This document shows, one piece after another, positions 1,736 to 24,840 of a stretch of 24,939 nucleotides of DNA. The DNA comes from a virus. The stretch covers positions 1 through 24,939 of IMG/VR virus record IMGVR_UViG_3300010885_078395, one strand, 5' to 3'. The notes under the pieces were generated by a model. That model saw only the letters and a list, made by a program, of their open reading frames with translations, was not told where the DNA came from and searched no databases. How positions within the stretch are numbered: position 1 is the stretch's first letter; each line of letters begins with the position of its first letter. Both the position numbers and the translations under genes were made by a program.

Positions 1736-2452
1736 CTATGCAGTATTTCCTGCTAAAGTCCAAGTGTTTGCCGCTCTTTTAAGTAAGGTTACTGTGGCAT
1801 ATTGTCCTGAAGTTGACAGCTGATTGTTTAGAGATTGAACCGTAACGCCAGTTGCTCCTCTAATACTCACGACTCCATTTGGACTAACTCCTGTTTGTTG
1901 GATTATAATCTGTGTTCCAATTGGAAAGTTAACAGAGGAGTCTGAGGGAATAGTTAAAGTTTGATTAGAACTCGTAAAGTTAATTGGAATGAAAGAATTT
2001 GTATCAGTAAGAGCTAAAGTAAAAGAAACGTTTCTTTCTGCTGACTGTACATTTAGAGAATCTCTGAATGAACAACTAGTACCATCAAATGTTAGAATTT
2101 GACCACGAAGAGCTCCAACAGTAGTAATTTGAGAGGGAGCTACGTACGTAGGCCCCAAATCCCCTTGTATTTGAACGCCCCAAGATCCGCTTTGAGTGGT
2201 CTGATTATAAAACCACACGAGATTAGCATTTTGTTGAAGAGTAGAAGTGTTAGGAGCAGGTATAAATTTTCGATCAACCGTAGAAGATATACTAGTAGTA
2301 ATGGTAGGATCGTTTTTGATAGCATATCCCGGAAGAGCAGAAGAGATTGACTCAACGCTTCCAGATAAACTTATAAAGGCGTTGTTAATTGCTCCAAGAG
2401 AGTCTCCGATGCATTGGTTTTCTGAAATTGGTATACCAGGTAATGTTGCCAT
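1736..2452 (-). CDS. Tail fibre protein with GDS/INN anchor motif (238 aa)
   Basis: Residues about 10-30 (SENQCIGDSLGAINNAFISL) carry the same N-terminal motif as the three genes upstream, probably an attachment module to baseplate or tail. The middle (about 85-135) contains short segments of the type 'GALRGQILTFDGTSC', common in phage fibre shafts. The C-terminus (about 140-238) has the pattern 'NFPIGTQIIIQQTG ... VVSIRGATGVTVQS ... GQYATVTLLKRAANTWTLAGN', a beta-rich terminal domain I recognise from fibre and structural proteins of marine T4-like phages. The ATG at 2452 is supported by a perfect TATAAATA 5 nt upstream. No Shine-Dalgarno sequence is visible. Fibre assignment is strong; the receptor is unknown. 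Confidence 0.75.
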   Translation of the reverse strand: MATLPGIPISENQCIGDSLGAINNAFISLSGSVESISSALPGYAIKNDPTITTSISSTVDRKFIPAPNTSTLQQNANLVWFYNQTTQSGSWGVQIQGDLGPTYVAPSQITTVGALRGQILTFDGTSCSFRDSLNVQSAERNVSFTLALTDTNSFIPINFTSSNQTLTIPSDSSVNFPIGTQIIIQQTGVSPNGVVSIRGATGVTVQSLNNQLSTSGQYATVTLLKRAANTWTLAGNTA

Positions 2453-2457
2453 ATGTT

Positions 2458-2465
2458 TATTTATA
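2458..2465 (-). promoter_or_regulatory. T4-type late promoter TATAAATA
   Basis: A perfect T4 late-promoter octamer ends exactly 5 nt before the ATG at 2452. With T4 geometry (octamer -13 to -6) the first transcribed base would be the A of the ATG. It overlaps the stop codon of the upstream fibre gene (TAA at 2461-2463). Confidence 0.65.
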
Positions 2466-4401
2466 AGTTGAAATCAACTTTCCAACCAAGAACATGAGCT
2501 GATTTTTGAAAAGTACCAGAATTTAATGGTCTTCTTACAAAGAACCTCAATAAGTCTCCTTTAGAATAATTCTTGAATATTTCAGAATTAACAGGAAAAG
2601 TAGTTTGATTTACTGTTCCATAAACTCCTGGATAGGAACTAACTGTATCAAATGTAGTTAAGTCCATGTTTAAACTCATTCCTGGAGAGCAGCATTGAGA
2701 TCCAAATTCCCATACAACAGAATATAAAGAATCAGAAGAAACAGATTCTCCTACTCCATTGACTCTTGCTAACCGTAACACGTCTGTATTACCAATCTTT
2801 TTAAATGTTCCTCCAACAATAAGAGAATTATTATAACGAATTAGTCCTTGATTGATTAGAGATGGGCTATGTTGCAAGTTAATCTTCCATAAAGAAGCAT
2901 CTGTGCCATATCTAAGGTTTTTATAACTTTTTTGTATTGCTGCTAAATAGTTAACATTTGTTGCATTAACTTTTGTGAATTTTCCATAGCAATACACATA
3001 ACTATCATATGCTCCATCATGAAAAGCAAAGCTTGTAACTGCTCCGTTAAAAGCAGGTTTCCAATTAGATTCAAACGTTGGAGAATATATGTTTGAGATG
3101 TTAAAGCACGCTGCATTATAAGCTCTCGTTGACTCATCGTTTGTTCTTGGTCTCGAATAAAATTGCGAAGAAGAATGCACTGAATTGAAAGATCCTCCAA
3201 TATAAAGATAGTTCCCATCAACAGAAGAAGTGAGAACTTCTCCTCCTATAAGACACTCCCAACCTCTGTTTTGTGTTCCGTCAACATTTAAGATAGCAAC
3301 GTTCCTAGTAGTTATAAAAGAATTATTCTTAATACTAAACAATCCCCCAATATATAACGCTAAACTTTTGAAAGAGATAGTATTAATAATTGCTCTTCCG
3401 TCAAACAGACTTGTAGTTGTAGATGCAAATTCTTTGTCAATTGCATTGTTTGGAGCTACATACAATTGTAGTAAAGAAATTTTTATTAGACCTTTTGTAT
3501 AGACTCTAAGTCCAGAAGAAGGAGAAGGACTTTGAGCTCCATAACTAATATAATCAAAGTCTCCTCCAACATACAAATCTGATCCAACTACGATTACTTT
3601 TCTTACATCTCCGTTTACATAGAATGGATAAACTTTCTTTGACTGTTTATCTAAAATTGTTAAGCCTCTACCTTTTGAAAGACTTTGGAAAGAACCTCCA
3701 ACTATTAGTAATGTTTTAAATTCAGCAATTGTTTGTACAGACCCAAATGATTGTAAGTCTCCTCCAGAAGATGTAGACAGAGGGCTGCTTACTACAGATC
3801 CAAAATTGCCTAAAGAAATGTTATCTCCTACATCTCCTCCAGATAAATCAAACGTGCATAATTTGTTGCGAGTTACTCCTCCAACTGTTGTAAATTTGCC
3901 TCCAACATAAAGTAAGTTATCAGAAGAAGAAAAATATAACAAATCAACAGAATCATTAAACTGAGAAGACAAATTTAGATTTGTGCTGTATATAGTAGTC
4001 GTGTCTGTCCCAGAAGCAGTCCAAAATAAACTAACAGTAGGAAGAGCATCAGTAAGGGAAACCGTTGAAAACGTTGCAACTGAATTATTGCCATTAGTTG
4101 CATACGGAAATGTAGTAACAGGAATATTTGTTCCGTCTCTCAAAAAGATTGACTCGGAGGGAGCTGAAGCTGTATACTCAAATTTTGTATTATAAACAAA
4201 AGAATTGGTTGTAGAAATATGAGAATTAAAACGAGATTGCTCTGTTATTTCTGAACTTACTGTTGTTCCCAATCCTCCAATTACTTCAGGGATTTCACAA
4301 AGACCTTCGTCAAGGGACTGAAAGTTAGCATTAAACGTAGCTAAAGAATCTCCCAAACAGGTATTGGGAGTTACTTGTTGTGTAAAATTGCAGACAGACA
4401 T
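2461..4401 (-). CDS. Tail fibre with seven delta-60/DUF5122-like propeller repeats and GDS anchor (646 aa)
   Basis: The N-terminus carries the locus-wide anchor motif (TPNTCLGDSLATFNANFQSL, about residues 11-30). The central part has seven repeats of the form [Y/I]-[V/I/C]-[G/Y]-G-x-F followed by a short variable stretch and an 'L-x-x-[F/L]-[D/N]' strand, e.g. LLYVGGKFTTVGG, LLIVGGSFQSL, LYVGGDFDYIS, LYIGGLFSIKN, LYIGGSFNSVH, VYCYGKFTKVN and LIVGGTFKKIG. This is the pattern of the delta-60/DUF5122 beta-propeller family; seven copies suggest a seven-bladed propeller. The last ~100 residues differ and end in a beta-rich segment (about 560-646) that could be a tip domain. The stop is followed almost at once by the next fibre gene, so the two probably share transcription. 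Receptor or glycan binding is inferred only. Confidence 0.75.
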   Translation of the reverse strand: MSVCNFTQQVTPNTCLGDSLATFNANFQSLDEGLCEIPEVIGGLGTTVSSEITEQSRFNSHISTTNSFVYNTKFEYTASAPSESIFLRDGTNIPVTTFPYATNGNNSVATFSTVSLTDALPTVSLFWTASGTDTTTIYSTNLNLSSQFNDSVDLLYFSSSDNLLYVGGKFTTVGGVTRNKLCTFDLSGGDVGDNISLGNFGSVVSSPLSTSSGGDLQSFGSVQTIAEFKTLLIVGGSFQSLSKGRGLTILDKQSKKVYPFYVNGDVRKVIVVGSDLYVGGDFDYISYGAQSPSPSSGLRVYTKGLIKISLLQLYVAPNNAIDKEFASTTTSLFDGRAIINTISFKSLALYIGGLFSIKNNSFITTRNVAILNVDGTQNRGWECLIGGEVLTSSVDGNYLYIGGSFNSVHSSSQFYSRPRTNDESTRAYNAACFNISNIYSPTFESNWKPAFNGAVTSFAFHDGAYDSYVYCYGKFTKVNATNVNYLAAIQKSYKNLRYGTDASLWKINLQHSPSLINQGLIRYNNSLIVGGTFKKIGNTDVLRLARVNGVGESVSSDSLYSVVWEFGSQCCSPGMSLNMDLTTFDTVSSYPGVYGTVNQTTFPVNSEIFKNYSKGDLLRFFVRRPLNSGTFQKSAHVLGWKVDFNL

Positions 4402-4406
4402 AAAGA

Positions 4407-4414
4407 TACTTATT
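4407..4414 (-). promoter_or_regulatory. Late-promoter-like octamer AATAAGTA
   Basis: AATAAGTA on the minus strand ends exactly 5 nt before the ATG at 4401. It overlaps the TAA of the 90-residue anchor gene just upstream. The G at position 6 recurs at 1696, 19408 and 24766, so it looks like a genuine variant of the octamer in this phage. Confidence 0.5.
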
Positions 4415-4682
4415 GCGGAGTAACAGGATTAGTACCATCTGCTACATACCATGTATCGTTATCTGCAGCTCCTGTAGCTACCATTAAACGAAAATTTGTC
4501 GAGTCATACACTATTCTACCTTGTTCTTTATCAATAGTGTTTGCTTCACTAGATCTATTAGCAATCTCGTCTGCAGTGAACGAAGGAGCAACAAATTTAT
4601 ATAATTCCAAAAAATTATTGTTAATCTTAGAAAGAGAGTCTCCAACATATTCTGTTCCGTCAATTAATTGAATGTTTACCAT
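4410..4682 (-). CDS. Stand-alone copy of the fibre N-terminal anchor domain (90 aa)
   Basis: The whole protein matches the first ~90 residues of the giant adhesin just upstream: an anchor motif (DGTEYVGDSLSKINNNFLEL, about 7-26), then KFVAPSFTADEIANRSS, then QGRIVYDSTNFRLMVATG and a WYVADG ending. The giant has KFVAPHSTAADLLTS, GKLIFDTDHNRLMVA and WHVINN at the same places. I chose ATG 4682 rather than the upstream in-frame TTG at 4700: it is an ATG, an ATTAAATA octamer lies 5 nt before it, and the anchor then starts at the same distance from the N-terminus as in the paralogues. It may be a duplicated anchor that lost its fibre, an adapter, or a competitor for attachment sites. Which of these cannot be told from sequence. 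Confidence 0.72.
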   Translation of the reverse strand: MVNIQLIDGTEYVGDSLSKINNNFLELYKFVAPSFTADEIANRSSEANTIDKEQGRIVYDSTNFRLMVATGAADNDTWYVADGTNPVTPQ

Positions 4683-4687
4683 AATTC

Positions 4688-4695
4688 TATTTAAT
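4688..4695 (-). promoter_or_regulatory. Late-promoter-like octamer ATTAAATA
   Basis: ATTAAATA on the minus strand ends exactly 5 nt before the ATG at 4682. It supports that ATG over the upstream TTG at 4700, which would place the octamer inside the coding region. Confidence 0.5.
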
Positions 4696-4720
4696 ATCAA
4701 CGTTGCCTGACTTTAGATTA

Positions 4721-7700
4721 TTAGGGAATAATATAAGGAATGACGTTGTCATCATAATTATAAGTTAAAAGAGCAGGATATCTGTCTGTGTTAAAATTGA
4801 GTAATAAAGTAGTGTTGATGTCCATCTTATAAGCATTTATTGGCACTCTGTATTCATGGAATGGAGGAGAAGATTGAAGCATATTATCTTCTATTCCTCG
4901 TGCTACATTAGAAAAACGTATTCCTGCCATTCGACCAATAAATTTATTATTATTTACTCGAGGACGGGCCCCTATAGTTAACAAAGCTCCATTTGAAAAC
5001 ATATCTGAGGAATCAGTAACGGAAGTTACTCTTTTGCCGTCTAGGAAATACTCTAATTGGCTTCCTCTTCTTCGTAATGCTAAATGATGCCAAATGTAAG
5101 CAGAGTTGGCCCCCCTATAAGGAACTTCTTGCAGATCTTTAGGGGCAGCGTTCGTGACTGCATTTGGCCCAGCAAGAGAAGAATAGTAGTTTATCATATG
5201 AGGAACGAGTGTTCCAAGGCCAGCTGAAGAAATAATATTGTTTCCTTCGTAACTATCAAAGGCAAACATATTCCAAAAAGAATAATCAATGTTGCTTGTA
5301 TAGAAAAATTCAAAAGTAAAATCTCCTTTTCCGAACGAAACTGATCTTGAAAGAGGAATGCTTATGTATCCATTTCCATCAAAGTTAACACACTTTATCT
5401 TGTAATATCGATAATACATACTATCGTTTCCCCAACCATGATACATATCTGGTATATGATTAGTTGTTGGACCATAAACGTATTGTGGGATCCCAATTCC
5501 ATAATTTCCTAATTGTTCAATTTTCCACTGAGAAACAAAATCCTCCGCCAAAGTTACTCCTTTATATATTAAAGGGGTTTCTGAATAAGTTGTTACAGAG
5601 TTAGCAAACCATTGTTGTTGTTGGGTAGTATATGCTATAGTTCTGCTTCCATTACTATAATTCCAGTAATTACCATGAGCATCAATAACAGCAGCTGCTG
5701 GTAAAGTTAATCCAGTATCTCCATCAGTAACAAATTGAGATATAGGATCTCCAAGCGGAGCATCATTCAAGTCTAAATTATTTAGCTGGGCGTTACCAGA
5801 ACAATCAAATTTTTTGTATACTAAAAGGGGACCTTTTATGCTAGTTAGTTGATTATAAGAACAATCAAAATAGGTATTTACCCACAACGGAGCTCCAGAT
5901 AAATTAGTTATTGTATTAAAAGAACAATTAAAGCTCTCCACTTTAGGAGGAGCAAATTGTATACTGCTTAACCGGTTGTAAGAACAATCAAAAACACCTC
6001 CGACTTGCAAAGGAGCAAATTGTATACTGCTTAAACTGCCGTAAGAACAATCAAAATTGCCTATAACAGCTGTTGGAGCATGCATCAATGTTTGTAAATT
6101 ACTATTATATGAACAATTAAAATACCCATATATATTAACAGGAGCTCCTTGTAAATTTATTATATTGTTGTAGCTACAATTAAAATTAGTAGCACTTGGA
6201 GCCCATTGCAAATTAGTTAATAAATTATTAGAACAGTTAAAAGTACCAGATACAGCGCTAGGAGCATAGTGCAACGTAGTTAGCTGGTTATCGTTGCAAA
6301 TAAAATCTCCATTTATTTCAGTCGGAGCTCCATATAGTGTAGTTAGTTGATTATTTGAGCAATAAAAAGAAGACCCAACATTATATGGAGAGTTCTCTAA
6401 ACTAGAAAGTTGATTTGAAGCACAATTAAAGCTGCCTGTAACTTTTATATTACTAAAATACAAAGAAGTTAATCCTTTTCCAGATATATTTAGATCTCCA
6501 GTATATGTATCTATAACAATACCATTGCTATCTGTGATAATACACAAACCATCTTTTTGAAAAAATAAATTTGGAGCTCCGTCTTCTCCATAAGAAGTTG
6601 TAAATATTTTGTCTCCAAGTTGAGGAAGGGGATAGTTGGAATAATAGACAGAGTTTTGTATATATGAGCGTTTAACTCTATAACGAACTTCGCTAACATA
6701 TTCCCAAGAAAGACCATTAATATCTTTTCCTAAAATTGGAGAAGCAAGTTGATTGTAATAACAATAGAAATTTTTACCCACTTTAGCAGGAGCATATTCT
6801 AAGGAAGATAATTGATTGCTATTACAATTAAACGTTCCTCCGACAGTAGACAATGTACTACCTAACATGGACACCAATAAGTTAGAACTGCAGTTAAAAT
6901 CTCCTCCAACGCTTGAAGGAGCATATTGTAGAGTGGTTAATTGATTATTAGAACAATTAAAATCTTTTCCTACACTAGAAGGAGCATATTGTAACGTAGT
7001 TAACAAGTTTGAATTACACAATAAACTGTCATTAAGATTAATTGGAGCTCCAGATAAACTAGTTAATCTATTGTTGTTACAAATAATACTTGAACTTGGG
7101 GGAGCATATTGAAGAGCAGTTAACTGATTGTAGCTGCAATTAAAAATTCCGTTTACTTGCTGAGGTGCTCCTCGCAAGCTAGATAATAAATTGTTAGAGC
7201 AATTAAAATTGCCAGTTACTTGCTGAGGAGATCCGGATAAACTTGATAAAAAGACATTAGAACAATCAAAGTTTCCACTTACTGTAACGATATTACTAAA
7301 ATACAAAGAGCTCAACCCCTGAATTGCTAGTGATATATTTCCCACAATAGTATCTGTAACTGCTCCATTGCGGTCTGTAGCAATACATATATCTCCTTGT
7401 TGATAAAATACGTTTGCGGCAACGTCTTTAGTCTGGCTATTGATATATAATATAGAACCCAAAGACAGAACAGAATCGTCAGAAAAATATATTCCCTGAG
7501 CGTAAGGATGAGTAGCAGCCAAACGAGTCGTTCCATTATATAACCAAGATTTCCCATCAACATCATTAGCTATAACTGGAAAATAAAGTTGATTATAAAA
7601 ACAAGTAAATCCTTCTCCAACATAAGCTGGAGCAGCACTGAGGGTGTAAAGTTTGTTGTTGAGGCAATTAAAATACCCTCCTATGCTGGAAGGAGAATAA

Positions 7701-10700
7701 TTCAAAGTAGATATACTATTGTAAGAACAATCAAAATATCCTCCTATGCTAGAAGGAGCATGTTGTAAAGTAGATATGCCGTTGTTTGAACAATTAAAAT
7801 ATCCTGTAACTTCAGAAGGAGATCCAACCAATGTTGTTATTCTGTTGTTGCTGCAATTAACATTTGTAACTATTTTAGGAGCATAACTTAACGTAGTTAA
7901 TTTGTTTTTAGAACAATCAAATGTTCCTCCAACACTCGAAGGAGCATAAAACAATGTAGTAAGGTAATTATCGTGACATACAAAGCTTCCAGGAACAACA
8001 GAGGGAGAATATTCAAGAACATCTAACTGATTATTATAACAATAAAAACTACCGTTTACTTTAGATGGAGCTCCTTGCAAGCTAATTAATTTGTTATTAC
8101 TACAATTGAAATCTCCACCTGTGCTCAAAGGAGAACCTCTCAATCCAGTTAATAAATTATCAGAACAATCAAAATTTCCTGTTACTGTTAAATTACTAAA
8201 ATATAAAGACGTTAAATTTTGGCCAGATACTGTTAAGTTTCCAGTCCAAGTATTTGCTACTGCTCCTTGATTGTCTGTTGCAATACAAATGTCTCCTTGT
8301 CTAAAATATATAGCAGATGCTACATCAGTTGTAGTTGGAGAGATGTATAGAATAATTCCTGCGCTCAAAGTAGGAACTCGAGAAAAATAAATATTTTGAC
8401 TATATCTATTCAAAGGAATGCTTCTTGCGCTGCCACCATAAGACCATTTATTACTATCTATATCCAGAGAAATTATTGGAAGAGGTATGTTATTATTTGA
8501 GCAATTAAATGTTGTTCCTCCAACATACGCAGGAGCATATTGCAGATCTACTAATTGATTATATGAACAATTAAAATTGCCGCCAACACTTGACGGAGAG
8601 TATTGCAAAGTGTGTATTGAATTATAACTACAATCAAACAAACCTCCTACTTTTAAAGGACCTCCACTCAGTCCTACCAAAGAATTGTAACTACAAATAT
8701 AATCACTTGAAACACTAGAAGGAGAGTATTGCAAAGTAGTTATATAATTGTTACTACAATCTAAATAAGTTACGTTTGAAGGACAATAAGATAGAGAAGA
8801 TAAACTGTTGTTGTTACATTTATATTGGCCAGTTACACGTGTTGGCCCGCTCTGTAAACCGGTTAATTGATTGTTACTACAAACAAAATTACCATTAATA
8901 GATTGAGGAGAACCATTCAGACTAGAAAGTAAATTGTCTGAGCAATTAAATGTTCCAATAACCTGTTTAATGTTGCTAAAATATAAAGATGTTAAGTTTT
9001 GATCAGAGACAGTTATATTTCCTGTATACACATCTGTAACCTGACCATTGTTATCTGTAGCAATACATATGTTTCCTTGTTTAAAGTACACATTTGCAGC
9101 TACCACGTTTGCTGTGTCGTAATTTCCTACATCAGGATTTACAAACAAAGTAGAACCAATTCTTAATATTTCATCATCAGAAAAATAATTTCCATGAGCA
9201 TATTTGTGATTATACACTATTTGATGAGATCCGTCACTGTTGTATCTTATATCTTGGCCAGCAGCATTCAAAGCAACATGAGGAAGATCAAATAGATTAC
9301 CTGCACAATAAACATTTCCAAATATTGTATCAGAAACAAATCTCATATTAGGAAGATTATTGTGAGAACAATTATATGTTCCAGCAGTCGACGGACATTT
9401 TCCTTGAAAACTTCCTCCTCCGCTCAGAGTTATTAATTGATTGTAGCTACAATCAAAATTCCCATTTATGTACATGTTATCAAGAGACCACAAACCTCCT
9501 TCTGTTCCAGCTTCTTGAATATAAATTCCATTTACTACACGTCCTATGTTGGTTACTGGTTTGAACTGACTAAGAGAAAAGCTAGTTAATTGATTATAAC
9601 TACAATTAAAATTACCTTGAATTCCTCCATGAAACAAAAATGTCTGATAACTATTATAAGGAATAGCTAAATGAACAATGTTGTTATGACTACAGTCAAT
9701 ACTCCCAGACACATATGCTGGAAATCCGTTAACGCTTGTTAGTTGATTATGGCTACAATTAAAATTTCCATTAACTGTTAAATTACTAAAATACAAAGAC
9801 GACAAACTTTGATTTGACACATCAATATTTCCTGTAAAATTATTTGTAACAACTCCGTTTCCATCCGTTGCGATACAAGTGTCTCCTTGTTTAAAATAAA
9901 CACCAGAAGCAACAGCAGTCGTAGTTGGAGAAGAATATAAAGTAACTCCTGTTTTTATTGTCGGAATTTTTGAAAAATATGAATTAACTGGATATGGATT
10001 TATTGCTCGAGTTCTGACTGTTTGTCCTGTATTTGGATTGCTTACAACATATGTCCAATATATATTTCCGTTATCAACAGCTGTGTGAGGAAAGGAAATT
10101 TGATTATCATTTCCGATCAGTATCAATCCTCCAATAGTATGAGGAGAATATTGTAAGGAACTTAAATTAGAATACCTACAATCAAAGTCTCCTCCAACTA
10201 CAGAAGGAGCTCCTTCCGTACTACTTAAAGGATTAGATCTGCAAATAAAATTTCCAGCTACATTAATTGGAGATCCTCGTAAACTAGTTAAATTATTACC
10301 TCCACAATTGAAATTTCCTGTTACTGTTATATTGCTAAAATATAAAGAGCTGAGAGAGCTTCCGGAAAGGCTTATATCTCCTACAAAATTGTTTGTGATA
10401 ACTCCTTTCTCGCTCGTAGCAATACAAATATTTCCTTGTCTGTAATAGATGTTGTTTGCTGTTATCGATCCAGTAGGAGAAACATACAAAGTGGATCCCA
10501 GATTTATTATAGGAGTTTTAGAAAAATAACCACCTTGATAATAAGGATTATCTGGAAGAACTCTAGCATTAATATCTATATTGTAATCCCAAATTGTTCC
10601 TTTAACATCAGCCGCGAGATGAGGAGAAGTAAAAAGATTTCCACCACAAAAAACATGACCTCCTATAACATGAGGAGCATATTCCATACTGGATAAAAAG

Positions 10701-11272
10701 TTATTTGTACAATTAAAGTTACCAGAAACGCTCGACGGAGCTCCTTGCAAGGTTCTCAACAAATTATCAGAGCAATTAAAATTACCAGTTATATTTAAAT
10801 TACTAAAATATAAAGAATTAAGATTCTGAGCAGATACTGTAATGTTTCCATTATATGTGTTTGTGACTGCTCCGTTTCCATCTGTTGCAATACAAAAATC
10901 TCTTTCTCTAAAATATACATTTGGGGCAGGAGTAGTGCCTTCTGTAGTAGTATATATTATGTCTCCAGCAGATAAATTAGCTACTTTTGCAAAGTAAATA
11001 TCATGAGGAAAGCGAGCTGGATTATTTATAACATGCCACGGGGACGCTGGATCAGAATTATAAGCAACCATTAGCCTATTGTGATCTGTATCAAATATTA
11101 GCTTCCCAAATGCTTTGTTGGTTGTATTTACAGACGCTGTAGAAGTAAGTAAGTCAGCAGCAGTTGAATGAGGGGCAACAAACTTAGCTAATTCATAAAA
11201 ATTATTGTTAATCTTCTCTCGGGATACTCCTAAACATTCTGTATTAGAAATTATTTGAATTAGCTCTGCCAT
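4721..11272 (-). CDS. Giant modular adhesin: anchor, seven LRR-like cysteine-ladder modules, LamG-like C-terminus (2183 aa)
   Basis: Residues ~1-90 form the anchor domain (SNTECLGVSREKINNNFYEL motif) shared with the neighbouring small protein. Residues ~90-1880 are seven modules. Each opens with a ~70-residue cap (YFSK-x-P..., G-x-x-LY-x-SP, [V/I]YF[K/R]QGD-x-CIATD, T-G-[N/D]-[I/L]-x-[V/I]-S, SLYFSN) and continues with 20-23-residue repeats of the type G-x-F-[N/D]-C-S-x-N-x-L-[T/S]-x-L-x-x-[A/S]-P. I count about 51 repeats, 3, 4, 6, 8, 10, 9 and 11 per module from N to C. The pattern is leucine-rich-repeat-like with a cysteine at a fixed place, as in the cysteine-ladder LRRs of Listeria InlJ. 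Residues ~1960-2150 (FDGNGYISIPLS, GDFTFEFFYTS, LTIGARP, GRMAGIRFSNVARG) look like a LamG/concanavalin-type lectin domain, probably the receptor-binding tip. The ATG at 11272 follows an AATAAATA octamer by 6 nt. A long tail fibre is inferred. Confidence 0.82.
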   Translation of the reverse strand: MAELIQIISNTECLGVSREKINNNFYELAKFVAPHSTAADLLTSTASVNTTNKAFGKLIFDTDHNRLMVAYNSDPASPWHVINNPARFPHDIYFAKVANLSAGDIIYTTTEGTTPAPNVYFRERDFCIATDGNGAVTNTYNGNITVSAQNLNSLYFSNLNITGNFNCSDNLLRTLQGAPSSVSGNFNCTNNFLSSMEYAPHVIGGHVFCGGNLFTSPHLAADVKGTIWDYNIDINARVLPDNPYYQGGYFSKTPIINLGSTLYVSPTGSITANNIYYRQGNICIATSEKGVITNNFVGDISLSGSSLSSLYFSNITVTGNFNCGGNNLTSLRGSPINVAGNFICRSNPLSSTEGAPSVVGGDFDCRYSNLSSLQYSPHTIGGLILIGNDNQISFPHTAVDNGNIYWTYVVSNPNTGQTVRTRAINPYPVNSYFSKIPTIKTGVTLYSSPTTTAVASGVYFKQGDTCIATDGNGVVTNNFTGNIDVSNQSLSSLYFSNLTVNGNFNCSHNQLTSVNGFPAYVSGSIDCSHNNIVHLAIPYNSYQTFLFHGGIQGNFNCSYNQLTSFSLSQFKPVTNIGRVVNGIYIQEAGTEGGLWSLDNMYINGNFDCSYNQLITLSGGGSFQGKCPSTAGTYNCSHNNLPNMRFVSDTIFGNVYCAGNLFDLPHVALNAAGQDIRYNSDGSHQIVYNHKYAHGNYFSDDEILRIGSTLFVNPDVGNYDTANVVAANVYFKQGNICIATDNNGQVTDVYTGNITVSDQNLTSLYFSNIKQVIGTFNCSDNLLSSLNGSPQSINGNFVCSNNQLTGLQSGPTRVTGQYKCNNNSLSSLSYCPSNVTYLDCSNNYITTLQYSPSSVSSDYICSYNSLVGLSGGPLKVGGLFDCSYNSIHTLQYSPSSVGGNFNCSYNQLVDLQYAPAYVGGTTFNCSNNNIPLPIISLDIDSNKWSYGGSARSIPLNRYSQNIYFSRVPTLSAGIILYISPTTTDVASAIYFRQGDICIATDNQGAVANTWTGNLTVSGQNLTSLYFSNLTVTGNFDCSDNLLTGLRGSPLSTGGDFNCSNNKLISLQGAPSKVNGSFYCYNNQLDVLEYSPSVVPGSFVCHDNYLTTLFYAPSSVGGTFDCSKNKLTTLSYAPKIVTNVNCSNNRITTLVGSPSEVTGYFNCSNNGISTLQHAPSSIGGYFDCSYNSISTLNYSPSSIGGYFNCLNNKLYTLSAAPAYVGEGFTCFYNQLYFPVIANDVDGKSWLYNGTTRLAATHPYAQGIYFSDDSVLSLGSILYINSQTKDVAANVFYQQGDICIATDRNGAVTDTIVGNISLAIQGLSSLYFSNIVTVSGNFDCSNVFLSSLSGSPQQVTGNFNCSNNLLSSLRGAPQQVNGIFNCSYNQLTALQYAPPSSSIICNNNRLTSLSGAPINLNDSLLCNSNLLTTLQYAPSSVGKDFNCSNNQLTTLQYAPSSVGGDFNCSSNLLVSMLGSTLSTVGGTFNCNSNQLSSLEYAPAKVGKNFYCYYNQLASPILGKDINGLSWEYVSEVRYRVKRSYIQNSVYYSNYPLPQLGDKIFTTSYGEDGAPNLFFQKDGLCIITDSNGIVIDTYTGDLNISGKGLTSLYFSNIKVTGSFNCASNQLSSLENSPYNVGSSFYCSNNQLTTLYGAPTEINGDFICNDNQLTTLHYAPSAVSGTFNCSNNLLTNLQWAPSATNFNCSYNNIINLQGAPVNIYGYFNCSYNSNLQTLMHAPTAVIGNFDCSYGSLSSIQFAPLQVGGVFDCSYNRLSSIQFAPPKVESFNCSFNTITNLSGAPLWVNTYFDCSYNQLTSIKGPLLVYKKFDCSGNAQLNNLDLNDAPLGDPISQFVTDGDTGLTLPAAAVIDAHGNYWNYSNGSRTIAYTTQQQQWFANSVTTYSETPLIYKGVTLAEDFVSQWKIEQLGNYGIGIPQYVYGPTTNHIPDMYHGWGNDSMYYRYYKIKCVNFDGNGYISIPLSRSVSFGKGDFTFEFFYTSNIDYSFWNMFAFDSYEGNNIISSAGLGTLVPHMINYYSSLAGPNAVTNAAPKDLQEVPYRGANSAYIWHHLALRRRGSQLEYFLDGKRVTSVTDSSDMFSNGALLTIGARPRVNNNKFIGRMAGIRFSNVARGIEDNMLQSSPPFHEYRVPINAYKMDINTTLLLNFNTDRYPALLTYNYDDNVIPYIIP
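5620..11010 (-). repeat. Seven direct repeat modules within the giant adhesin gene
   Basis: Approximate module spans, in transcription order: 10540-11010, 9985-10540, 9195-9985, 8400-9195, 7500-8400, 6655-7500 and 5620-6655. Each cap contains the peptide SLYFSN, seen on the plus strand as near-identical 'CTAAAATA[CT]AAAGA' at about 10803, 10334, 9785, 8966, 8190, 7294 and 6452. Within modules the ~63-69-bp LRR units are also similar at DNA level. The array offers many sites for unequal recombination. Confidence 0.8.
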
Positions 11273-11277
11273 AAGGG

Positions 11278-11823
11278 CTATTTATTAGGTAAGTTTAAAA
11301 CTTCTTGTGTATCAGAACCAAATAATTTTTTCATAATGTCTTCTCGAGAAGCAACTAAAATATTGTTATTTGTGATATGATTTGGACCTTGAGTGAGCTG
11401 AGCTATTTCTTTTCTTCCTTGTATACGAATTCTCTCAAGACCTTCATCCCTGTTAGCTTTTTTATTAATAAGAGCAAGTTTTTGCAAAGCTTCTAAAGAT
11501 TGAGCTGTAGAGGTCATCAGCTTTGAAAGAGCTTCAATCTCCCGTGAATCAGAACCAGCAACTATACTGGGAGTTAAATCTTGTACAGCTCCCAAGCCAG
11601 CTTCAACAAGAGCTTTGGTTTTATTTAAAAAGTATTGCTGGAGGTCTTCTTCTTTAAAAGGAGTTGTGTCTTGTACGGCTTTTTGGGTATTAGGAGAGGG
11701 CATAGAAAAATTGCCAATCTCATCTAGTAGATTTGAAATATCATCATCAGAAGTGCTCACAATAAATTTACTTAACTGAGTTGATAAATTTGTTAACAGC
11801 TGTATAGTTGTTTGGTATGTCAA
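11278..11823 (-). CDS. 16: Small terminase subunit, T4 gp16-like (181 aa)
   Basis: The protein resembles T4 gp16 in length (181 vs 164) and arrangement. An acidic N-terminal part (DDDISNLLDEIG) is followed by a central coiled-coil stretch, about residues 93-130, with the phrase 'REIEALSKLMTSTAQSLEAL' that parallels T4 gp16 '[20 protein letters not shown]'. The C-terminal 'NNNILVASREDIMKKLFG' parallels gp16 '[20 protein letters not shown]'. The small subunit regulates the large terminase gp17 and recognises concatemeric DNA during headful packaging. No gp17 is visible nearby. The only usable start is TTG at 11823, because upstream in-frame codons are TAG and TAA and there is no early ATG. That start overlaps the divergent gene by 7 bp. 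Family call by remembered pattern, not by alignment. Confidence 0.68.
   Translation of the reverse strand: MTYQTTIQLLTNLSTQLSKFIVSTSDDDISNLLDEIGNFSMPSPNTQKAVQDTTPFKEEDLQQYFLNKTKALVEAGLGAVQDLTPSIVAGSDSREIEALSKLMTSTAQSLEALQKLALINKKANRDEGLERIRIQGRKEIAQLTQGPNHITNNNILVASREDIMKKLFGSDTQEVLNLPNK
11279..11286 (-). promoter_or_regulatory. Late-promoter-like octamer AATAAATA before the giant adhesin
   Basis: AATAAATA on the minus strand ends 6 nt before the ATG at 11272. It overlaps the TAG stop (11278-11280) of the small terminase gene. The predicted leader is one base. Confidence 0.55.
11781..11808 (+). promoter_or_regulatory. Sigma70-like promoter for the 11817 operon
   Basis: TTGATA (11781-11786), a 16-bp spacer, then TATAGT (11803-11808), with the ATG 8 nt downstream. 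It lies inside the 5' part of the divergent terminase gene. The expected start point falls 0-2 nt before the ATG. It lacks the TGTCCAC box seen in the other plus-strand promoters. Confidence 0.5.
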
Positions 11824-12001: not shown

Positions 12002-12012
12002 AATTGAGAGAT

Positions 12013-12507
12013 ATGAAACACATTCTAGGTCCTAATTCAAAAAGTACTCTAACTAACGTCCAAGAAGGAGACAGTCAACCAAACGCAGTAGACCTTCGAT
12101 TAGATAAAGTATTTCGTATTTTTTCAGATGTATTTGAAATTACAAATGAAACAAAAAAGCACAGAAAAACAATTGTAATTGAACCAGATGAAGACGGTTT
12201 CTTTAACTTAGACATAGGAGATTATGAAGTAATTTTTGAAAATGTAATCAACGTTGGAGAAGGAGAAGCAGGATGGGTCATAACAAGAAGCACACTTAAT
12301 AGGAATGGATTATTTCTCACTAGTGGATTGTATGATACTAACTATCACGGTTTGATGGCAGGTTGTTTGCATGTGGGAACTGGGCCTGCTCGTATCAAAA
12401 AGGGAACTCGTATTGGTCAGTATTTAAGCTTTGACTCTGAGAGCTTAAGCAAGTATAATGGTTCATATGGACTACAGTCAGAGCACGATAAAAAATACAA
12501 TGTCTAG
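12013..12507 (+). CDS. dUTPase/dCTP deaminase-fold nucleotide protein (164 aa)
   Basis: The fold is shown by QPNAVDLRLDKVFRIF (about residues 22-37, like the dCTP deaminase 'NPASVDLRLG..FRVF'), GWVITRSTLNRNGL (about 91-104, phosphate-binding 'RSSLxRxG'), GLYDTNYHG (about 109-117) and KKGTRIGQYLSF (about 131-142). At the active site it has the D-x-x-Y-x-G arrangement of dUTPase motif III. The glutamate that dCTP deaminases carry just after it (…LE…) seems replaced (LMAGCL). On those residues dUTP hydrolysis is more likely than dCTP deamination, but a clear glycine-rich dUTPase motif V is missing. Probable role: keeping uracil out of phage DNA or supplying dUMP. It lies between the 59-aa gene and the clamp loader, overlapping the latter by 8 bp. 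Confidence 0.8.
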   Translation: MKHILGPNSKSTLTNVQEGDSQPNAVDLRLDKVFRIFSDVFEITNETKKHRKTIVIEPDEDGFFNLDIGDYEVIFENVINVGEGEAGWVITRSTLNRNGLFLTSGLYDTNYHGLMAGCLHVGTGPARIKKGTRIGQYLSFDSESLSKYNGSYGLQSEHDKKYNV

Positions 12508-23007: not shown

Positions 23008-23922
23008 ATGGATGTCATTACTAACACAACTTGCAAAAACTTCACTAGAGCTTCAGAAGTTGAGATTCCTGGAATCTATTTTAGGAAATTCAAGACCGGT
23101 ATTGAAGATCTTGATAATGCTTTTGGAGGACAAGGATTTCTTCCAGGTAGTGTTATTATGTTAGCAGCAACCGCAGGACTTGGAAAATCAACTCTTGCTC
23201 TTCAGCTTCTTCAGTCTTTAGAAGATTCTGGAAAAAAGACTGCATACATTTCTGGAGAAGAGACTATCATTCAGATCAGTCTTGCAGCACGAAGAGTTCA
23301 AGCTCTTAGTGTTCCTGTTGCTAATCTTACCTACATAGAAGATATCGAACAAGCTGTTATAGAGCATGGATTTGACTTTATTGTTCTAGATAGTTTTCCT
23401 ACTATTGCAACAAAGCAAAAGAAAATGAAGAGCAAAGAAAAGGAAAGTTATGTTATCAGCAAGTTAGTCAAGCTTGCAAAGGAACGTGAAGTATGTATGT
23501 TGATCATTCAGCATTGTACTAAGGATGGAAACTATCGTGGTGGTACTGAGCTAGTACATGCAATTGACGCTCATTTCTCTTTGGAGAAGAACAAGGAAGA
23601 TGATGGTCTTCGTGACTTGATAGCTCACAAGAATCGTTTCGGAGCTTGTGTGATTACTACATTCTCTTTTAGTTCTAGAGGATATGACTTTGAAGCAGTA
23701 GAAGTAGAGTCCCCTATTGAAACTCCTAAGAAAGGTAACAAGGGCCCAAGCAAAAGAGATGCCGTGTTAAGCATTCTTGATACCAACAAAACTATTGCAG
23801 ACATTGTTAAAGAGACTCAAGTTAATGGAGGATATCTTACGACCCTAATGAGAGAAGTTGTAAACGAAGGACTAGTAATTAAACAAGGAAAAGGAAGTAC
23901 TGCTACTTTTATTAAAGCTTAA
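23008..23922 (+). CDS. RadA/Sms-like RecA-superfamily ATPase (304 aa)
   Basis: RecA-fold core with Walker A ATAGLGKST (54-62), 'AYISGEET' (79-86, RadA/KaiC style), Walker B FIVLDSF (124-130), a basic loop (KQKKMKSKEK) and the KNRFG motif (208-212) that marks RadA/Sms proteins. Bacterial RadA drives branch migration in recombination and acts as a DnaB-type helicase. This protein lacks RadA's N-terminal four-cysteine zinc finger and C-terminal Lon-like domain. It has instead a ~55-residue C-terminus (about 250-304: KRDAVLSIL, IADIVKET, YLTTLMREVVNEGLV) resembling a winged helix, probably DNA binding. Likely role: phage recombination or replication ATPase. Its stop overlaps the convergent GIY-YIG gene by 11 bp. 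The ATG is fixed by position: the next in-frame Met is at residue 51, inside the conserved core. Confidence 0.82.
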   Translation: MDVITNTTCKNFTRASEVEIPGIYFRKFKTGIEDLDNAFGGQGFLPGSVIMLAATAGLGKSTLALQLLQSLEDSGKKTAYISGEETIIQISLAARRVQALSVPVANLTYIEDIEQAVIEHGFDFIVLDSFPTIATKQKKMKSKEKESYVISKLVKLAKEREVCMLIIQHCTKDGNYRGGTELVHAIDAHFSLEKNKEDDGLRDLIAHKNRFGACVITTFSFSSRGYDFEAVEVESPIETPKKGNKGPSKRDAVLSILDTNKTIADIVKETQVNGGYLTTLMREVVNEGLVIKQGKGSTATFIKA

Positions 23923-24757
23923 TCCCACAACGAATAGCATGTAGGGCAACCAAAAAGAAAAACTGGTCTCTTCCTTGATGCCACGTTTTCCATCTTTTAA
24001 TTTGAGCTTCTGATTTTTGCTTTTGGAGTTCTGGATTTAGTTGAGCTTTTGATTGATTTGATCTTTTTTGTTCGGATGCTATTTTTCCTTTCCATTTCTC
24101 AGAAAGTATAATTCCGCAACGGAGAGCGTACAAAGCAATCATATACATATAACAATCCTTTCCCAATCGCCTTTCTGCCCAAACTCTTTCCATTCTTTCG
24201 CTTTTTATCTTTACCATTTCAGGAGAGGATTGAAACTCTTTAACTTTTGCTTTATGTTCTTCTGACTTGGGTCTTCCTTTCATTTTTGATCTAAGATTGG
24301 CACACCACTCTTCGCTACGTTTTTTGCCTTTATGTCGAAGAGAATTTGCTTTTTTCCATTCATCAGTATGTTTGTAATTTCTAGCTTTTTGAATTATGGA
24401 CATTCTTTGTCTATCTTCTAGAGTATGCTTCTTTCCAGTCATTGGAGCTTTTACTACTCTAGCGCTATTATATCCCTTTTCATTAAAAGGTTGGAGAGTA
24501 TCTAAATAGTATTGTTCCCTTTCCCATAAGATGTTTTGAGAGCATTCTTCAATTACTTCCCACATGAAAGATTCTTTTCCGTATTTCTCAAAAGCTCTTA
24601 ACAGATACTTGTTGTTATTCTTTCCGGTATTAAGATCAGTTCTATGTAGTCCCCACCTTCTGTGCACATCTACAGACGAACCAACATATATTTTTCCATT
24701 TGGGATACAGGTAATTTTATAAATACCTACAGTACGAGATTGATTATTAACTGACAT
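23912..24757 (-). CDS. GIY-YIG homing endonuclease with NUMOD3 repeats (281 aa)
   Basis: Free-standing seg-type endonuclease that cuts DNA to spread its own gene. GIY is at 11-13 and the YIG equivalent is YVG (24-26) in GKIYVGSS. The catalytic arginine is R33 or R34 (HRRW) and the metal-binding glutamate lies in WEREQYYLD (79-83). Residues ~106-175 hold three to four NUMOD3-type DNA-binding motifs (TGKKHTLEDRQ, HKGKKRSEEW, KGRPKSEEHKAKV). The C-terminus has a duplicated phrase, IALYALRCGI (207-216) and VALHAIRCGI (270-279), absent from typical members as far as I know. I chose ATG 24757, which is directly before the GIY core and has GATAAGTA 8 nt upstream. An in-frame ATG at 24820 would include a long hairpin in the coding region. 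It lies against the plus-strand genes and may have been inserted between the RadA-like gene and its terminator. Confidence 0.88.
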   Translation of the reverse strand: MSVNNQSRTVGIYKITCIPNGKIYVGSSVDVHRRWGLHRTDLNTGKNNNKYLLRAFEKYGKESFMWEVIEECSQNILWEREQYYLDTLQPFNEKGYNSARVVKAPMTGKKHTLEDRQRMSIIQKARNYKHTDEWKKANSLRHKGKKRSEEWCANLRSKMKGRPKSEEHKAKVKEFQSSPEMVKIKSERMERVWAERRLGKDCYMYMIALYALRCGIILSEKWKGKIASEQKRSNQSKAQLNPELQKQKSEAQIKRWKTWHQGRDQFFFLVALHAIRCGIKL

Positions 24758-24807
24758 TGCATAATTACTTATCATCTCCAGGGCTATTTTTGTGGACTGA
24801 CATTGCA
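24750..24807. repeat. 12-bp direct repeat ACTGACATTGCA flanking the endonuclease 5' end
   Basis: Identical 12-mers occur at 24750-24761 and 24796-24807, 46 bp apart. One covers the chosen endonuclease start codon and the other lies in the loop of the hairpin. It could be a small local duplication, a target-site trace or chance. Confidence 0.5.
24766..24773 (-). promoter_or_regulatory. Late-promoter-like octamer GATAAGTA for the endonuclease
   Basis: GATAAGTA on the minus strand ends 8 nt before ATG 24757. The predicted transcript would start at 24760 with a 3-nt leader, just downstream of the hairpin arm at 24774-24784. Confidence 0.42.
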
Positions 24808-24840
24808 ATTTCTTCTTCACAAAGGCCCTGGAGATTTTTT
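24774..24840 (+). terminator. Long hairpin with T-run, probable terminator
   Basis: Perfect 11-bp arms ATCTCCAGGGC (24774-24784) and GCCCTGGAGAT (24825-24835) continue, after a small internal loop, with TTTGTG (24789-24794) pairing CACAAA (24818-24823); the apical loop is about 23 nt. Six Ts (24835-24840) follow on the plus strand. It ends 1 nt before the next plus-strand promoter, so it would insulate that gene from upstream readthrough. The large loop is atypical for a Rho-independent terminator. The same arm would also fold in minus-strand RNA 5' of the endonuclease gene. Confidence 0.5.

What the first reader, a model, noticed from the sequence alone, without database searches (positions are those of the whole stretch)
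4721..11272. Giant cysteine-ladder LRR adhesin with seven capped modules growing in length toward the C-terminus
About 51 LRR-like units with a near-invariant cysteine are divided into seven modules, each introduced by the same ~70-residue cap (QGD-x-CIATD ... SLYFSN). The repeat count rises along the protein: 3, 4, 6, 8, 10, 9, 11. A LamG-like domain ends the fibre. Cysteine-ladder LRRs are known in bacterial surface proteins such as InlJ. A 2183-residue phage fibre built this way, with periodic caps, looks unusual and may be a string of rods and hinges of graded length.
Basis: partly seen in the sequence, partly recalled or inferred. Interest (0 to 1): 0.72.

Follow-up and report, generated by a model that had tools for sequence, protein, structure and literature searches.

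The report
Giant phage fibre of LRR rods
A T4-like phage carries a 2,183-residue, probably tail-borne adhesin built from seven capped leucine-rich-repeat rods with a lectin-like C-terminal domain; the parts are known, the arrangement is rare, and the neat growth in rod length is probably incidental.

Summary
Window 4721-11272, minus strand, is one 2183-aa frame with 51 leucine-rich-repeat (LRR) units of ~21 residues, 50 with the ladder cysteine, in seven blocks of 3, 4, 6, 8, 10, 9 and 11. A Laminin_G_3 domain follows. AlphaFold2 of one module (pLDDT 85.5) gives an LRR solenoid close to InlJ and YopM/IpaH-type LRRs.

The N-terminus carries an anchor motif found in 27 distinct proteins of this gene cluster in the phage and its relatives, and in none of 1020 control phage ORFs. 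Several of those proteins match tail-fibre families, so this is very probably a virion adhesin in a swappable fibre cassette. One relative has an anchored fibre ending in LRRs. An otherwise different 184-kb phage contig encodes a second multi-block LRR giant (2195 aa) with homologous caps, but its blocks are not graded. Graded length is therefore not a rule; 63-bp duplications show rods grow unit by unit.

Verdict: new variant of a known kind (phage fibre using InlJ-like LRR rods). Virion location, oligomeric state and receptor are inferred.

The parts
4721..11272 (-). whole gene P0001, 2183 aa
11183..11272 (-). N-terminal anchor motif (aa 1-30, CLGVSREKINNNFYEL), shared with other proteins of the cassette
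11021..11182 (-). aa 31-84, rest of the N-terminal domain; with the anchor it is 43% identical to the 4410-4700 ORF
10583..11020 (-). module 1 (aa 85-230): link + N-cap, 3 LRR, C-cap; boundaries set by eye
10049..10582 (-). module 2 (aa 231-408): 4 LRR, the fourth without Cys
9242..10048 (-). module 3 (aa 409-677): 6 LRR, irregular, with inserted loops
8438..9241 (-). module 4 (aa 678-945): 8 LRR
7538..8437 (-). module 5 (aa 946-1245): 10 LRR; structure predicted as aa 900-1345
6698..7537 (-). module 6 (aa 1246-1525): 9 LRR
5657..6697 (-). module 7 (aa 1526-1872): 11 LRR and C-cap LPAAAVIDAHGNYWNY
   Evidence: C-cap by eye
7665..7805 (-). 63-bp tandem array inside module 5, one LRR unit per copy (82% matches)
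5920..6056 (-). 63-bp tandem array inside module 7 (79% matches); units 7 and 8 are 90% identical in DNA
4898..5380 (-). Laminin_G_3 (concanavalin-like lectin) domain, aa 1965-2125
   Evidence: E 7.7e-8, above Pfam cut-off
11278..11823 (-). conserved gene directly upstream that marks the fibre cassette in relatives
4410..4700 (-). 96-aa ORF: anchor domain alone, no fibre
2461..4401 (-). 646-aa anchored protein with weak beta-propeller matches; counterpart present in near relatives
1736..2452 (-). 238-aa anchored protein; C-terminal half matches minor tail / virion structural PHROGs

Best explanation
P0001 is a virion adhesin, most likely a tail or baseplate fibre, of a T4-like phage. Its N-terminal anchor plugs it into the same virion site as the other anchored proteins of the cassette (shared motif shown; site inferred). 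Seven complete capped cysteine-ladder LRR rods, joined by short links, form a long segmented arm (LRR fold shown by prediction for one module; arm shape and link angles inferred). The LamG domain near the C-terminus and/or the faces of the LRR rods bind the host surface (inferred). Rods lengthen by duplication of 63-bp units and whole modules were copied, so reach and binding surface can change quickly (duplications shown; consequence inferred).
For: LRR solenoid: AF2 pLDDT 85.5, YopM Z 20.3 and InlJ Z 18.6, InlJ best by sequence E 2e-15. Anchor: 27 distinct proteins in the cassette loci against 0 of 1020 control ORFs. Anchored cassette proteins match tail fibre, tail collar and virion structural PHROGs. 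Setting: tape measure, baseplate hub and T4-type clamp loader matches nearby. Relative L026 has an anchored collar-domain fibre ending in LRRs. LamG domain above cut-off; LamG_3 domains are reported in jumbo-phage tail fibres (PMC7824862). Unit duplications.
Against: No proteomics or EM; the anchor's function is inferred from position and company. Fibre shafts are usually trimeric, and LRR solenoids usually are not; oligomeric state unknown. The C-terminal model failed. None of the near relatives holds a P0001-like giant. Most phage LRR ORFs of this type are small single-block proteins, probably not fibres.
Confidence: 0.75

Rival explanations
1. The LRR rods are mainly a stalk: their length sets the reach, and only the LamG domain binds the receptor.
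For: LamG lies distal to the rods. Rod length changes by unit duplication. In P0003 and P0002 the LRRs are C-terminal, so here a tip may have been added beyond them.
Against: In P0003 the LRRs are themselves the end of the fibre, and P0002 ends in LRRs. The InlJ LRR is classed as the adhesive domain, not the stalk, in fibrillar adhesins (PMC9210967).
Confidence: 0.35
2. The growing module length is a designed gradient that sets the mechanics of the fibre (short stiff units at the base, long ones at the tip).
For: One inversion only in seven modules (7 of 5040 permutations).
Against: Post hoc statistic on one protein. The other multi-block giant runs roughly 14, 13, 5, 9. Unit number changes by recent duplication.
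Confidence: 0.1
3. P0001 is not a virion part but an accessory protein acting in or on the infected cell, like the small phage LRR proteins.
For: Phage LRR ORFs of this type are mostly small, single-block proteins; a relative of this phage (G003) carries several.
Against: Anchor shared with fibre-like neighbours, position in the structural cluster, LamG domain.
Confidence: 0.12

Closest known systems
Internalin J (InlJ, PDB 3bz5), cysteine-ladder LRR adhesin
   Same: 21-residue LRR with ladder cysteine; best PDB match by sequence (E 2e-15); Z 18.6 over 238 residues
   Different: Seven capped domains, phage anchor and LamG instead of one domain on a bacterial wall protein; 139 bits against NCBIfam's InlJ cut-off of 1700
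YopM / IpaH / SspH-type bacterial effector LRRs
   Same: LRR fold, best Foldseek matches
   Different: Match limited to LRRs; short matches by sequence; no effector domains seen
phrog_7816 and phrog_21719 (phage LRR proteins, unknown function)
   Same: E 8e-34 and 3e-32 to P0001; same LRR type
   Different: Profiles are 739 and 554 positions long and matched only in part; most phage ORFs of this type are 200-400 aa with one block
P0002, 2195-aa LRR giant of IMGVR_UViG_3300035188_001379 (L123)
   Same: Four LRR blocks separated by homologous C-cap/link/N-cap junctions (hhalign E 4e-14)
   Different: Different N-terminus (repetitive, no anchor motif), no LamG match, blocks not graded
P0003, anchored collar-domain fibre of L026
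   Same: Same anchor, same cassette, C-terminal LRRs
   Different: 965 aa, one LRR block, no capped modules
LamG-bearing giant proteins of cyanophages (Synechococcus phages S-M1, QB2) and jumbo-phage fibres
   Same: LamG (concanavalin-like) domain in a large phage protein
   Different: The match covers the LamG domain only; LRRs are not mentioned in the jumbo-phage survey

Membership tests
InlJ-type internalin | LRR solenoid of ~21-residue units with ladder cysteine | tested here: met
   Cys-Cys distances in the model were not measured
InlJ-type internalin | full-length match to NCBIfam model NF033187 | tested here: not met
   139.4 bits against a cut-off of 1700
InlJ-type internalin | signal peptide and LPXTG wall anchor | tested here: not met
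   N-terminus MAELIQIISNTECLGVS lacks a hydrophobic core and the C-terminal 60 residues hold no LPXTG (by eye)
Phage tail fibre / virion adhesin of this cassette | shared N-terminal anchor CxGDSLxxINxNFxxL | tested here: met
Phage tail fibre / virion adhesin of this cassette | position directly after the conserved 181-aa gene, in the tail gene cluster | tested here: met
Phage tail fibre / virion adhesin of this cassette | present in virions | not testable with these tools
   needs proteomics or EM
Phage tail fibre / virion adhesin of this cassette | trimeric shaft | not testable with these tools
   oligomer not modelled
Laminin G / concanavalin A-like lectin domain | match above Pfam gathering score | tested here: met
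   PF13385, 33.1 bits against 27.6
Laminin G / concanavalin A-like lectin domain | jelly-roll fold | tested here: inconclusive
   single-sequence AF2 failed, pLDDT 28
Multi-module capped LRR phage giant (with P0002) | LRR blocks separated by homologous C-cap/link/N-cap junctions | tested here: met
   hhalign E 4e-14; three end-to-end profile matches in P0002, best E 6.6e-11; the middle of the link is not conserved

The most novel reading that the evidence does not exclude
A new architectural class of phage fibre: a segmented, possibly single-chain arm of repeated complete cysteine-ladder LRR domains, in place of the usual trimeric shaft, whose reach and binding surface change by duplication of 21-residue units and of whole modules.
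Probability: 0.3. Interest if true: 0.65.

Novelty: new variant of a known kind. Interest (0 to 1): 0.45.

Why it matters
Phage fibre shafts are usually trimeric (general knowledge). A shaft of repeated LRR domains would be a different solution, with possible binding surfaces along its whole length and an easy way to change by unit duplication. It also gives part of the large pool of uncharacterised phage LRR proteins a likely virion setting, through the anchored fibres P0001 and P0003.

Tried and rejected
Close relatives of P0001 by exact peptides in IMG/VR: none. Cap profile in IMG/VR and in GTDB genomes: none. Cap against Pfam and PDB sequences: nothing significant. N-terminal 164 aa in phages and plasmids: only weak matches (E 0.06-0.5), to Agrobacterium phage Atu_ph07, Sinorhizobium phage Phosso and one plasmid. 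C-terminal structure prediction without an alignment failed, so no fold search was made with it. The cap was not folded alone, so whether its link has a known fold is open. LRR search of GTDB genomes gave 17 loci; the LRR ORFs listed there are 159-598 aa and none resembles P0001. Literature searches found no paper describing an LRR phage tail fibre in the held open-access library; subscription papers are not covered. Horizontal acquisition is not suggested by G+C: 33-35% in the gene against 30-37% across the window.

Full report
Check of the observation. The ORF is real, on the minus strand. Fifty of 51 units carry the ladder cysteine. Module 3 is irregular.

Anatomy. The last unit of each block is a variant ending in NxxxxPxxAxDxxGxxWxY, which aligns across modules. 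It is followed by a short link (YFSxxPxLxxGxxLYxxP...) and an N-cap (QGDICIATDxNG...SLYFSN) that is itself LRR-like. So what was called a cap is C-cap, link and N-cap, and the protein is a chain of seven complete capped LRR domains. Module 7 also ends in a C-cap (LPAAAVIDAHGNYWNY, by eye); then come a further stretch and a Laminin_G_3 domain at aa 1965-2125.

Structure. AlphaFold2 on module 5 with flanking junctions, using the protein's own modules as alignment, gives pLDDT 85.5 and pTM 0.73. Foldseek finds bacterial LRR proteins first. VIA-align gives YopM Z 20.3 (227 residues) and InlJ Z 18.6 (238 residues, 24% identity), among many tied LRR folds. Among viral models the matches are mainly LRR proteins of giant viruses and uncultured phages. 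Cysteine distances and the angle between modules were not measured. The C-terminal model failed.

Setting. The record is a 24.9-kb virus contig of a T4-like phage, judged from clamp loader, tape measure and baseplate hub matches. The gene starts 5 bases after a conserved gene whose relatives were found in 33 viral loci. In near relatives that gene is followed by a changing set of proteins, most of which start with the same anchor, CxGDSLxxINxNFxxL. The motif occurs in 27 distinct proteins there and in none of 1020 ORFs from other phage loci. Anchored proteins match tail fibre, collar and virion families. P0003 of L026 carries the anchor, a collar-like domain and LRRs. In the 12 nearest relatives no P0001-like LRR giant was found in this place; P0003 was missed by the LRR pattern and found by profile only.

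Wider relatives. LRRs of this sequence type are common in phages, mostly as single-block ORFs (median 265 aa among 214 ORFs; only one over 1000 aa). That one is P0002 in a 184-kb contig, 2195 aa, with about 14, 13, 5 and 9 units in four blocks (my count). Its junctions are homologous to those of P0001 at both caps, and the P0001 junction profile matches it end to end three times. The middle of the link is not conserved. P0002 lies next to other fibre-like ORFs (by eye).

Growth. Two tandem arrays of 63 bp, one LRR unit, at 79-82% match, lie in modules 7 and 5; units 7 and 8 of module 7 are 90% identical in DNA over the segment compared. So rods lengthen by unit duplication. The near-monotone series has a permutation frequency of 7/5040, but this was noticed after the fact, and P0002 is not graded. 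I regard the gradient as probably incidental.

Mechanism and confidence. Most likely a tail or baseplate adhesin, anchored at its N-terminus, with segmented LRR rods and a LamG domain towards the far end (0.75 for virion adhesin). Whether the rods themselves bind or only give reach is open. InlJ-type LRRs are adhesive domains in bacterial fibrillar adhesins (PMC9210967), and LamG domains are reported in jumbo-phage tail fibres (PMC7824862), where LRRs are not mentioned.

Novelty. New variant of a known kind: a known LRR type, a known LamG domain and a phage fibre anchor, in an architecture for which only one further example, P0002, was found.

Noticed in passing
window 4410-4700, minus strand: A 96-aa ORF that is the P0001 anchor domain alone (43% identity over 80 aa): a stub of another fibre, or a scar of swapping.
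   Followed up: partly
L019 (G003:C1:44000-54000): A relative of this phage carries a family of ~200-aa ORFs that share an N-terminal stretch like MNKDQKLLEEAYxxI and a C-terminal DxDxxDF, several with LRRs between; might be a targeting tag, for example for the capsid (a guess).
   Followed up: no
G008 (596,785-base record, L097), and LR756501 (L021): Very large phages with many separate LRR ORFs: at least 110 profile matches in G008 and a run of LRR genes in LR756501. Function unknown.
   Followed up: no
L005 12189-13004 and 14023-15024; L006 14714-15808; L007 13039-14028; window 23912-24820: GIY-YIG-like ORFs (by eye, KIYVGSS / FYVGKGKG) sit between structural genes; those of the relatives are absent at the same place in the window.
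   Followed up: no
window 12004-12507, plus strand: dCTP deaminase-like gene (Pfam DCD, E 3.6e-12) next to the clamp loader, inside the structural cluster.
   Followed up: no
OP917831.1 7213-26064 (Synechococcus phage S-M1; L134): A single 18.9-kb CDS annotated as hypothetical protein contains the LamG relative.
   Followed up: no
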